A DNA stretch of 64,000 nucleotides from Microvirga aerophila (GTDB lineage Bacteria > Pseudomonadota > Alphaproteobacteria > Rhizobiales > Beijerinckiaceae), in contig NZ_QOIO01000022.1 in assembly GCF_003332305.1 (NCBI RefSeq), forward strand, positions 1-64,000, written 5' to 3'. Below the pieces are notes generated by a model, which was not told where the DNA came from, did no database searches, and worked only from the letters and a program-made list of their open reading frames with translations. Of this stretch, positions 17,933 to 20,836 are shown piece by piece (position 1 is the stretch's first letter; every line of letters begins with the position of its first letter). The position numbers and the translations under genes were made by a program.

Positions 17933-19222
17933 ATGACAGTCCTCGTCCACCGCCTCCGCTTCGCAACAGCGGCTCTTCTAACATTCGTCGCCTGCGCCAT
18001 GCCCCTGGTGGGATCTTCACGGACGCACGCACAGGCGCTGGACGCACCCGTCGCCACCGAAGCGCAGTTCCGAGACTGGCTCTTACGGACCGTCTGGCCT
18101 GATGCGGAAAGACAGGGCGTCTCCAGGGACACGTTCGAGCGCAGCTTCGCCAAGGTCACGCTCGATTGGGATCTCCCGGAGCTTCAGCCGCCCGGCCGGG
18201 CGACTCCCCCAGACAGCCAACGGCAAGCAGAGTTCCAGAGCCCGGGTCGCTACTTTGCCGAAGCCCAGCTCACCTCCCTCGCAAAGCGTGGCAATGAACT
18301 CCTCCGCCAGTGGGCCGCCACTCTTGACGACATCGAGCGGCGTTTCGGCGTGCCACGGGAGATCGTCGTCGCGATCTGGGGACGGGAGTCGAATTTCGGC
18401 CGTGTCACGGCACGGCATCAAGCCGTGAGAGTGCTCGCCACTCAGGCTTTCATGGGGCGGCGGCGCACGCTGTACTATCCGGAGCTCCTGTCGGCTCTGG
18501 TGATCCTCGAAGAGGATCATCTGTCCGGCGAGGCCCTGCTGTCGTCATGGGCCGGAGCCATGGGACAACCGCAGTTCCTCCCTTCGAAATTCCTGCGCTA
18601 CGCCGTTGACGGGGATGGGGACGGGCGACGGGATATCTGGCAGTCAGCGCCTGACAGTCTTGCGTCCATTGCGAGTTTTCTGCGCGAGCACGGCTGGAGA
18701 CCGGAGCAGCGCTGGGGCATCGAGGTTCGCGTGCCTCAGACGGTGACCTGCGCTCTCGAAGGACCGGGCCAAGGCAGAACGATGCAGGAGTGGCTGCGGC
18801 TTGGATTGGCTCCCATCGGCGATGCTTCCTTGCCGGAGTGGAGCAGCAACCCAACCGCCTTCCTGCTGATGCCCGCAGGTCGACTGGGACCATCCTTCCT
18901 GGTTTCCAAGAACTTCTACGTCCTCAAGCAGTATAACGAGTCCGACCTGTACGCGCTGTTCATCGGCCACCTCGCTGATCGTATGAGGGGCGCCTCGGCT
19001 TTCGCCGGGGAGTGGAGACCAATCGATTCCATGAGGCGTAGCGACATTCACGCGATGCAGGAGCGCCTGAAGAGCGATGGCTACGATGTGGGCAGGGTGG
19101 ATGGCCTGATAGGGTTCGCAACCCGCACAGCAATCGGTCAATGGCAGGCGAAAAGTCGACGCGATGAGACCTGCTACCCGGATGCCGGCCTGATACAAGC
19201 CATTCGCGGAGCCCGTCCGTGA
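17933..19222 (+). CDS. Lytic murein transglycosylase (MltB family)
   Basis: A 429-residue periplasmic enzyme that cleaves the glycan strand of peptidoglycan to form 1,6-anhydromuropeptides. A signal peptide (about 1-35, ending THAQA) precedes an SLT_2/MltB catalytic domain, with the catalytic Glu in IWGRESNFGR (about residue 152) and the conserved GAMGQPQFLPS. A C-terminal peptidoglycan-binding domain (about 365-425, IHAMQERLKSDGYDVGRVDG) completes it. There is no lipobox, so this is the soluble form. The insertion sequence follows 88 bp after its stop. Confidence 0.93.
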   Translation: MTVLVHRLRFATAALLTFVACAMPLVGSSRTHAQALDAPVATEAQFRDWLLRTVWPDAERQGVSRDTFERSFAKVTLDWDLPELQPPGRATPPDSQRQAEFQSPGRYFAEAQLTSLAKRGNELLRQWAATLDDIERRFGVPREIVVAIWGRESNFGRVTARHQAVRVLATQAFMGRRRTLYYPELLSALVILEEDHLSGEALLSSWAGAMGQPQFLPSKFLRYAVDGDGDGRRDIWQSAPDSLASIASFLREHGWRPEQRWGIEVRVPQTVTCALEGPGQGRTMQEWLRLGLAPIGDASLPEWSSNPTAFLLMPAGRLGPSFLVSKNFYVLKQYNESDLYALFIGHLADRMRGASAFAGEWRPIDSMRRSDIHAMQERLKSDGYDVGRVDGLIGFATRTAIGQWQAKSRRDETCYPDAGLIQAIRGARP

Positions 19223-19309
19223 TGGACCGGACGAATTTTCACGGTTGCTCGCCCGTCACCTCACTGGACTCTCAGCACGACCTTCGAACCGGGCCTTTTG
19301 ACCCAATGT

Positions 19310-19324
19310 ATGGACCGGCCGTGC
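19310..19324. repeat. Subterminal inverted repeat, transposase 3' side
   Basis: ATGGACCGGCCGTGC is an exact reverse complement of 20669-20683. It marks the right end relative to the transposase. Confidence 0.75.
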
Positions 19325-19568
19325 GTCGCAAGAGGCTTTGGAAATGGTGAGATTGGTCTTGCGCTAATGTATCCGACCCTTACGGAGCAGTGCTCCTGGC
19401 CATCATGGATATCCGCGCACATTGGTTCTCATTAGCTGATCGGCCCTTTATGGCCCTTTGGGTCACCAGAGCCCCAATGTGACGGCGCGACCGTTCTCCA
19501 TCTCCTCATCCTCTCGCAGACCTCGGCGAGCTCAAAGTGACGACTGATGCGGACAGAGGCTTTCAGCC
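19325..19568 (-). ncRNA. Candidate guide RNA (seekRNA/bridge RNA) of the insertion sequence
   Basis: This non-coding stretch between the transposase stop and the inverted repeat is densely structured. An 8-bp stem (19418-19425 with 19474-19481), extended by CGCG pairing (19414-19417 with 19486-19489), closes an internal loop capped by a short GGCC/GGCC hairpin (19442-19455). On one side of the loop, 19427-19438 matches 20683-20694 outside the far inverted repeat at 11 of 12 positions. On the other, 19458-19465 is the exact reverse complement of 19299-19306 outside the near repeat. A 7-bp stem (19327-19333 with 19357-19363) and a GGAGC/GCTCC hairpin (19384-19396) also occur. IS1111-type elements are known to encode a guide RNA at this place; transcription here is inferred. 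Confidence 0.6.
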
Positions 19569-20620
19569 TCAGCCTGCCATAGCCGCTGCTCGTGGTTCAT
19601 AGACGCGGTTCTGGCTCAGCACACTCCAGGCGATGCGAGCCAGCTTGTTGGCCAGAGCTGCCGCCAAGACATTGTGGTGCAGGCGCATTGAGGCAGCGGT
19701 GAGCCATGCCCCGAAACTGTGCTGGCGCCATTTTGCCGGCCAGAGCAGCAGCACGCGAGCGGCCTGGATCAGCAGGGATCGCAGGTAGCTGTTGCCGCGC
19801 TTCGACAGGCGGCCCAGCACGGTTCTATCCCCAGTGGAGATCTGGCGCGGCACCAACCCGAGCCAGGCGCCGAAATCGCGTCCACGCTGGAAGGCCGCGC
19901 CGTTGCCGATAGCGGCCACCATGGCACTGGCGATGATCGGCCCTACCCCTGGCACACTCATCAGACGCTGGCAGGCCTCGTCAGCCGCCACGAGAGCTTC
20001 GATCTCCTCGGTGACTGCCTCAATCCGGCCGTCGAGATGATGCCAGTCCTGCACCAGGCCTTCGATCAAGTGTACCATCCGCAGGGTGAGAACATCGGTG
20101 CGTTTGGCCAGGATGTCGGGCAGCGCCTGCCGCAGGGATCGCAGCCCCTGTCGGACAGCGATGCCACGCTCGAGCAGAAAGGTGCGGATCTGGTTGACCA
20201 CTGCTGTGCGCTGGCTCACCAGCCGTGAACGCACGCGGTGCAGGGCTTGCAGGTCGAGCTGCTCAACCGTCTTGGTGGGCACGAAACGCATGGTGGGGCG
20301 GAGCACTGCCTCGGCAGTGGCCTCGGCGTCGCGGAAGTCGTTCTTGTGGCTTTTGCGGAAGGGCTTCACGAACTGAGCGGGATCAGCTTCACGTCGTGGC
20401 CGAGGGCCAGCAACTGGCGGCTGAGATGGTGGGCTCCCACACACGCCTCCATCCCGATCAGACAGGTGGGCATGTTGACGAGGCGCTGCTCGACTTGGCC
20501 ACGCGAGAGCTTCTGGCGCAGGACAATGGCGCCGCGGGCATCCAGGCCGATCAGGTGGAAGCTGTTCTTGCCGATGTCGATGCCAAGGGTGGCAACAGGT
20601 TGAAGCGGAGCATTAGGCAT
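19569..20620 (-). pseudogene. IS110 family transposase, frameshifted
   Basis: A DEDD recombinase of the IS110/IS1111 family split over two frames. The first 84 codons give the RuvC-like start (TLGIDIGKNSFHLIGLD, IGMEACVGAHHLSRQLLALG). The rest (QFVKPFRKSHKNDFRDAEA, then the C-terminal domain with SVPGVGPIIASAMVAAIG and AWLGLVPRQISTGDRTVLG) lies in the next frame. The break is at 20376-20381: adding one G to the CCGCTCAG stretch (as read on the minus strand) gives LIPAQFVKPF, the family consensus. So the enzyme is probably dead, although a one-base sequencing error would look the same. The C-terminal serine-containing domain is otherwise intact. Confidence 0.9.
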
Positions 20621-20668
20621 GGCTCAGATCCTCGTGCTGGGCGCCCCTCCTGAAGGGTGCGCCGGTAA

Positions 20669-20683
20669 GCACGGCCGGTCCAT
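20669..20683. repeat. Subterminal inverted repeat, transposase 5' side
   Basis: GCACGGCCGGTCCAT, the exact partner of 19310-19324, lies 49 nt upstream of the transposase start codon. Confidence 0.75.
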
Positions 20684-20740
20684 CCCATTAGCTGTCTTTT
20701 CGACTTCGAATATGAACGGCCACTCAATCGCATGAGCTTG

Positions 20741-20768
20741 TCTGGTCGCCGCAGTGATGCGGCGACCA
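20741..20768 (-). terminator. Strong hairpin downstream of the 20837-21514 gene
   Basis: A perfect 11-bp stem (CTGGTCGCCGC with GCGGCGACCAG) has a 6-nt loop, 69 nt beyond the stop of the minus-strand gene. There is no U-tract on either side, so it may act as an mRNA 3' end structure rather than a true intrinsic terminator. It lies outside the insertion sequence. Confidence 0.4.
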
Positions 20769-20836
20769 GAGGGAGAGAGCCCCTGGTGAAGCTAGACCAT
20801 AAAACCCGCAACCCGACCCATCATCTCTGTGGCGGA

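What the first reader, a model, noticed from the sequence alone, without database searches (positions are those of the whole stretch)
19299..20694. IS1111-type element whose 3' non-coding DNA carries two candidate guide segments matching its own two ends
The sequence shows a 15-bp perfect inverted repeat (19310-19324 / 20669-20683) around a DEDD transposase. After the transposase stop, an 8-bp stem (CACATTGG with CCAATGTG, 19418-19425 / 19474-19481) closes an internal loop capped by a GGCC hairpin. The plus-strand 5' side of that loop (19427-19438, TCTCATTAGCTG) matches 20683-20694 just outside the far repeat at 11 of 12 positions; the one difference is C/T, which would be a G-U wobble. The other side (19458-19465, TTGGGTCA) is the exact reverse complement of 19299-19306, 3 nt outside the near repeat. 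Opposite orientation of two guides on the two sides of one loop is what the guide RNAs (seekRNA/bridge RNA) of IS110/IS1111 recombinases show. Relative to the element, the order of left and right guides appears reversed compared with IS110-type bridge RNA, which is worth checking. Because IS1111 elements have short tails outside the repeats, part of the 12-nt match could be the element's own end, not target.
Basis: partly seen in the sequence, partly recalled or inferred. Interest (0 to 1): 0.8.

Follow-up and report, generated by a model that had tools for sequence, protein, structure and literature searches.

The report
IS1111 element with its seekRNA guides
This is a decayed copy of a known kind of bacterial jumping element that uses a small guide RNA to choose where it lands, and related copies show the guide and the landing site changing together; it is a well-supported new member of a known family and nothing of a new kind.

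Summary
Window 19307-20690 is a 1384-bp IS1111-family insertion sequence in a Microvirga genome: 15-bp subterminal inverted repeats, a 7-bp left tail (TAATGGG), a 3-bp right tail (ACA), a DEDD-type transposase on the minus strand and a 244-nt downstream non-coding region holding a seekRNA-like hairpin. Across 79 related copies the 5' guide covaries with the right flank, and across the 46 with a left flank the 3' guide covaries with it (0 of 5000 shuffles reach either value, also within subgroups). Nine held-out copies from other genera repeat the right-flank match as a set. Corrections: only 4 of the 12 matching nt at the far end are target, 7 are the element's own tail and 1 the repeat; the mismatch is A opposite C on the RNA strand, no wobble; the transposase frame is broken here. 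Two details look less familiar: the crossover base agrees in guide, element end and target (T in most copies, G in one subgroup of three), and in about a third of copies, this one included, the right half-site sits one nucleotide closer than the guide predicts.

The parts
19307..20690 (-). whole IS1111-family element (1384 bp)
   Evidence: tails constant in close relatives while flanks vary; the joined ends form a conserved promoter-like sequence
19299..19306 (-). right flank, target half matched by the 5' guide
   Evidence: exact 8-nt complement; GGGTCA in 24 of 33 subgroup-1 copies
19307..19309 (-). right tail ACA
19310..19324 (-). right subterminal inverted repeat
19325..19568 (-). downstream non-coding region
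   Evidence: fold z-score -2.74
19326..19331 (-). -35-like TTGCGA of the circle-junction promoter
   Evidence: 17 bp from CATAAT once the ends are joined; position kept in the four subgroups
19402..19483 (-). seekRNA-like hairpin as modelled (alignment A1, model R1)
19474..19481 (-). 5' arm of the closing 8-bp stem
19458..19465 (-). 5' guide (would pair with the top strand of the right target half)
19442..19455 (-). GGCC capping hairpin
   Evidence: 97.7% of cells paired, hardly any variation
19434..19438 (-). 3' guide: CAGC matches the left flank, followed by the core base T
19427..19433 (-). continuation of the 3' guide segment that matches the element's own left tail
19418..19425 (-). 3' arm of the closing stem
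19569..20444 (-). transposase, downstream ORF (291 aa): PF02371 and the end of DEDD_Tnp_IS110
20366..20620 (-). transposase, upstream ORF (84 aa): N-terminal part
   Evidence: NF033542 positions 2-78; no Pfam match at the threshold used
20669..20683 (-). left subterminal inverted repeat
20684..20690 (-). left tail TAATGGG; its TAAT completes the -10 of the circle-junction promoter
20691..20694 (-). left flank, target half matched by the 3' guide (CAGC)

Best explanation
A decayed IS1111-family insertion sequence. An intact relative would excise as a circle; the joined ends make a promoter that drives the transposase and the downstream non-coding RNA (inferred from the sequence and from published IS1111 work). 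The hairpin 19402-19483 is the seekRNA: its 5' guide pairs with the top strand of the right target half and its 3' guide with the bottom strand of the left target half plus one core base, and so chooses the insertion site. Shown here: anatomy, ends, guide-flank covariation, stem covariation. Inferred: transcription, binding to the transposase, guidance. This copy cannot make a full transposase in one frame, and a DNA search found only partial relatives in its genome, so it is probably immobile now.
For: Pfam PF02371 and DEDD_Tnp_IS110 (downstream ORF) and NCBIfam NF033542 'IS110 family RNA-guided transposase' (both ORFs). Tails 7 and 3 bp as published for IS1111: with a query that excluded the tails, TAATGGG in 19 of 19 left ends and ACA in 25 of 27 right ends of the relatives. 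Circle junction: -35 TTGCGA in 15 of 19 subgroup-1 copies (TTGCAC in 3), 17 bp, -10 CATAAT in 18 of 19 and in 10 of 11 of subgroup 3, GATAAT in 14 of 16 of subgroup 4, CAGAAT in 2 of 2 of subgroup 2. 5' guide against right flank: mean longest match 6.95 against 4.59 shuffled, 0 of 5000, n = 79; 3' guide against left flank: 4.24 against 3.51, 0 of 5000, n = 46; within-subgroup shuffles also 0 of 5000 for both. 3' guide matches at -1 to -5 are 0.95, 0.92, 0.62, 0.89, 0.76, then 0.32 and 0.22, n = 37. Held-out: 9 of 16 model hits outside the genus had a readable right end, mean 7.22 against 5.27, 38 of 20000. Unoccupied sites: 25 of 54 matches to GTCYGC-N(0-6)-GGGTCAA in 13 genomes of the genus have a 3-nt spacer; 54 matches against 27 for the reversed pattern.
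Against: No RNA data were available. No allelic empty site of this insertion was found. In the commoner register this copy's 5' guide matches 5 of 9 flank bases; 8 of 9 match only after a 1-nt shift. Its left flank matches the 3' guide at 4 of 5 positions. The single-sequence minimum-energy fold differs inside the loop from the consensus. The unoccupied pattern for subgroup 3 is not enriched over the reversed pattern. Taken alone, the left-guide test is weaker in subgroups 1, 3 and 4 (36, 2 and 29 of 5000). One held-out copy, L294, matches poorly (4 nt). Of three Bradyrhizobium copies outside the tested set that I looked at afterwards, L047 shows a 6-nt right match (GGCGTC), L046 and L053 no convincing one. 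The copies are related, so the shuffle counts are not probabilities.
Confidence: 0.93

Rival explanations
1. The loop segments resemble the flanks only because the element carried pieces of its target along, or by shared descent; they do not guide anything.
For: Most of the 12-nt far match is the element's own tail. Copies in one genome share both loop and half-sites (VF16 copies), and shuffles treat related copies as independent.
Against: Flanks lie in different sequence contexts; loops and flanks change together within subgroups (0 of 5000) and in held-out copies with other guides (L297, L298, L299); stem pairs are kept through changes on both sides.
Confidence: 0.04
2. An IS110-type bridge RNA with separate target and donor loops, placed at the other end.
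For: Same transposase superfamily; Durrant et al. 2024 (PMC11208160, passages read) treat the IS1111 RNA as a bridge RNA in the right end.
Against: Guide order, 15-bp repeats, 7/3 tails and downstream RNA are those of IS1111. A separate donor loop was not searched for, so this differs mainly in naming.
Confidence: 0.03

Closest known systems
IS1111 family with seekRNA (ISEc11, ISPa11, ISKpn4; Siddiquee et al. 2024, PMC11187229)
   Same: subterminal inverted repeats, 7-bp left and 3-bp right tails, RNA downstream of the transposase gene, two guides in the order top-strand then bottom-strand, junction promoter, natural redirection between relatives
   Different: other guides and target; transposase broken in this copy; relatives show a variable 1-nt register at the right half-site and a core base shared by guide, element end and target, which I did not see described in the sections read
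IS110/IS621 bridge RNA (Durrant et al. 2024, PMC11208160)
   Same: DEDD recombinase, RNA pairing with both target strands, core bases shared by target and donor
   Different: RNA upstream of the gene, guide order reversed (order from PMC11187229 and recall), CT dinucleotide core, separate donor-binding loop (passages read)

Membership tests
IS1111 family | subterminal inverted repeats (usually 11-13 bp, 7-17 reported) | tested here: met
   15 bp, perfect; ranges
IS1111 family | asymmetric tails, 7 bp left and 3 bp right | tested here: met
   TAATGGG in 19 of 19 and ACA in 25 of 27 ends of relatives while flanks vary
IS1111 family | longer non-coding region downstream of the transposase gene | tested here: met
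   19325-19568, 244 nt; 48 nt upstream between ORF and repeat
IS1111 family | DEDD transposase of 330-350 aa with PF02371 and a GL-P----S(T)G motif | tested here: met
   PF02371, PF01548 (part) and the motif (GLVPRQISTG) in the downstream ORF, NF033542 in both, frame broken in this copy; intact relatives L005 and L006 350 aa. The four catalytic residues were not mapped one by one
IS1111 family | seekRNA with the top-strand match 5' of the bottom-strand match | tested here: met
   published order
IS1111 family | promoter formed at the circle junction | tested here: met
   sequence consensus only, conserved over copies; activity not tested
IS1111 family | insertion without target duplication | tested here: inconclusive
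   no allelic empty site; related unoccupied sites fit a clean insertion in many copies and one or two bases fewer in others
IS1111 family | RNA transcribed and bound by the transposase | not testable with these tools
   no RNA data
IS110 (bridge RNA) group | non-coding RNA upstream of the gene, bottom-strand match first | tested here: not met
   RNA region is downstream, top-strand match first
IS110 (bridge RNA) group | separate donor-binding loop | not tested
   the longer RNA was not searched for one

The most novel reading that the evidence does not exclude
In this lineage the 3' guide reads a single core base that agrees in the guide, in the first base of the left tail and in the first base of the right flank: outside subgroup 2 the guide base is T in 73 of 76 copies and the right-flank base T in 65 of 76; in subgroup 2 both are G in 3 of 3. 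The right half-site is accepted in two registers: 37 of 68 copies fit the guide unshifted, 23 fit with one base missing, 8 tie, while unoccupied sites of the window's kind favour the longer spacing. So the complex may tolerate, or create by losing a base at the right junction, a one-nucleotide change in the distance between the two guided half-sites.
Probability: 0.35. Interest if true: 0.45.

Novelty: new member of a known kind. Interest (0 to 1): 0.3.

Why it matters
It adds a set of elements in Microvirga, Bradyrhizobium and relatives in which guides and targets have changed together several times in nature (GGGTCA, GGGCCA/GAGCCA, TGGCAC, AATCTCTGC, T-rich sites and others). That gives a free map of which guide positions are read (about 9 on the right, 5 plus a core base on the left) and how strictly, useful for anyone reprogramming IS1111 systems.

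Tried and rejected
Allelic empty site: searched with each flank in 48 genomes of the genus, with one flank in plasmids and with the joined flanks in the own genome; none found. Rfam: only matches far below the gathering scores over the element. A known target repeat: 6 of 15 unoccupied sites with a 3-nt spacer carry GC[AGT]GAC 25-75 nt downstream, 0 of 15 upstream; suggestive of an imperfect palindrome, not pursued. Subgroup-3 unoccupied pattern GTCYGC-N(0-6)-TGGCAC: fewer matches than the reversed control in 12 of 13 genomes and equal in the other, so no fixed left half-site could be shown for it. Loss of bases at the right junction: for subgroup-4 targets just upstream of an IS3-like orfB, the pattern search lists T6 in 30 and T5 in 4 unoccupied sites and no T4, while the six occupied copies of that site have T6 in 3 and T4 in 3 (L180, with another sequence after the T run, not counted). 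Two other sites gave few unoccupied matches with varying T runs. Homopolymer slippage is an equally good reading.

Rows dropped: one search gave 166 rows; 81 without a readable loop (wrong-end matches, or right ends without the loop) were set aside, leaving 85. Six of these were dropped by hand before the tests (L171, L172, L177, L203, L230, whose 5' loop side is not homologous, and a second right end of L185), leaving 79. Dropping the first five favours the right-guide result. Copies whose ends or loop exceed the scripts' mismatch limits, among them many Bradyrhizobium loci, never entered. Of the places listed without a locus, 74 regions were fetched; some at contig edges were not. One search used 68 loops (33 in A1: 30 distinct of subgroup 1 and 3 of subgroup 2; 35 of the 42 distinct subgroup 3 and 4 loops); there subgroup 1 favours the unshifted register 20 to 8, subgroups 3 and 4 show no preference (9 to 9, 5 to 6). 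Of 16 held-out model hits, 7 had no readable right end and may include false ones. Six of the nine readable ones share the TGACCC guide with copies that were in the model.

Full report
What is there. The window's genome is placed in a genus whose member G032 has contigs of exactly the lengths of Microvirga sp. VF16, and the closest relatives of the element are in Microvirga. On the minus strand lies an IS110-superfamily transposase in two ORFs, 84 aa (20366-20620) and 291 aa (19569-20444); the larger has Pfam PF02371 and part of DEDD_Tnp_IS110, both match NCBIfam NF033542 'IS110 family RNA-guided transposase'. Relatives L005 and L006 have one ORF of 350 aa, so this copy has a frameshift; L017 has no full-length ORF either. 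Around it lie the 15-bp repeats, and downstream of it 244 nt of non-coding DNA. A DNA search of the own genome found, besides this copy, three partial matches.

Ends. With a query that left the tails out, TAATGGG precedes the left repeat in 19 of 19 relatives and ACA follows the right one in 25 of 27 (AGA in L046 and L053), while the sequence beyond differs. More distant subgroups vary: GAATGGG in 2 of 2 of subgroup 2, TAATGGC in 15 of 16 and AGA in 19 of 20 of subgroup 4. Seven and three bp are the tail lengths given for IS1111 by Siddiquee et al. 2024 (introduction read). Joining the two ends gives TTGCGA, 17 bp, CATAAT; the arrangement is kept in the four subgroups.

The RNA. Thirty-three loops align over 86 columns. 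Counted on the alignment for those two helices, 95.4% of cells pair, 41 cells have changes on both sides (14.9 shuffled), covariation 0.306 against 0.168, 0 of 500 for these three; pairs with a change on both sides 68 of 500, further pair types 20 of 500; slid controls pair 11-46%. The changes on both sides are all in the stem; the GGCC hairpin hardly varies. Thirty-five loops of two further subgroups give a similar hairpin with weaker covariation.

The guides. I sorted 79 copies into four subgroups by tail and loop (33, 3, 23, 20). The longest exact match between the 5' loop side and the right flank averages 6.95 against 4.59 when flanks are shuffled; between the 3' side and the left flank 4.24 against 3.51 (46 copies with a left flank). 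No shuffle of 5000 reaches either, nor when shuffled within subgroups; subgroups 1, 3 and 4 alone give 0 of 5000 each on the right and 36, 2 and 29 of 5000 on the left. Examples: GCAGAGATT and AATCTCTGC (L061); TGGCTC and GAGCCA (L078); ACTAC and ACTAC (L220, left); GAAGTC and GAAGTC (L160, left). At fixed register the 3' guide reads five flank bases, 0.95, 0.92, 0.62, 0.89, 0.76, falling to 0.32 and 0.22 beyond (37 copies). Related copies are not independent, so these shuffle counts are not probabilities.

Held-out test. A covariance model of the 33 loops was run on 347 genomes of the order; 15 had a match, the own genome included, giving 16 matches elsewhere. Nine had a readable right end; their guides match their flanks with mean 7.22 against 5.27 shuffled, 38 of 20000. 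Six of the nine share the TGACCC guide of model members; three, L297, L298 and L299, carry other guides. One, L294, does not match well (4 nt). Left flanks were readable in four of the nine; read by eye, the 3' guide matches at 4 of 5 positions in L293, L295 and L296 and at 3 of 5 in L292, without a shuffle test. Outside this test, of three Bradyrhizobium copies with diverged ends, L047 shows a 6-nt right match and L046 and L053 none that convinces.

Target. Unoccupied sites of the form GTCYGC-N(0-6)-GGGTCAA were sought in 13 genomes: 54 matches against 27 of the reversed pattern, 25 of them with a spacer of exactly three, other spacers 2 to 9 each. Some lie in what looks like a dispersed repeat. 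Several subgroup-4 copies sit in a T run just upstream of an IS3-like orfB (the family name is recalled).

Core base and register. The base after the right tail is T in 65 of 76 copies outside subgroup 2 and G in 3 of 3 in subgroup 2; the guide base is T in 73 of 76 and G in 3 of 3; the first base of the left tail is T in 45 of 46 outside subgroup 2 and G in 2 of 2 (Fisher test on right-flank G, P = 5e-5, but the three copies are related). The right half-site fits the guide unshifted in 37 of 68 copies, with one base missing in 23, tie in 8; subgroup 1 favours the unshifted register (20 to 8), subgroups 3 and 4 do not (9 to 9, 5 to 6). Occupied subgroup-1 sites have a spacer of 3 in 15, 2 in 8, 1 in 1 and no exact GGGTCA at such a distance in 9 of 33. 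This copy is in the shifted class. Whether such copies used shorter sites or lost a base is open.

Comparison with what is known. Durrant et al. 2024 (PMC11208160; passages read) predict such RNAs in 93.0% of IS1111 elements, apparently in the right end. Searches for 'seekRNA' (9 papers), 'bridge RNA' with 'IS110' (19), 'IS1111' with 'guide RNA' from 2023 (6), 'IS1111' with 'subterminal inverted repeats' (27, 15 listed) and 'Microvirga' with 'IS1111' (0) showed no title about these elements; only the two papers above were opened.

Verdict. Real, correctly read in the main, and a new member of a known kind. The transposase of this copy is broken and guidance itself was not tested.

Noticed in passing
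L308:402-420 and 33 further unoccupied sites: Some subgroup-4 relatives insert in a T run just upstream of an IS3-like orfB; unoccupied sites have T6 (30) or T5 (4), the six occupied copies of that site T6 (3) or T4 (3).
   Followed up: partly
L092, L100, L243, L248, L268 around 1501: Unoccupied GTC[ACT]GC-NNN-GGGTCA sites look like part of a dispersed, partly palindromic repeat with GC[AG]GAC about 50 nt downstream.
   Followed up: partly
L031:1874-4123 and L072:1183-3237: Relatives of the element are themselves interrupted by about 0.9 kb and 1.5 kb of other DNA.
   Followed up: no
L185: This copy carries a second right end in tandem just before its right flank.
   Followed up: no
window 19221-19233: A 13-nt stretch at the stop of the neighbouring ORF 17933-19222 resembles the element's inverted repeat and next base (12 of 13); probably chance.
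   Followed up: no
window 20741-20770: Perfect 13-bp inverted repeat with a 4-nt loop between the element and the next ORF, terminator-like.
   Followed up: no
L002 (G000:C165): A remnant of a related element, 76% identical over 485 bp, in the same genome.
   Followed up: no
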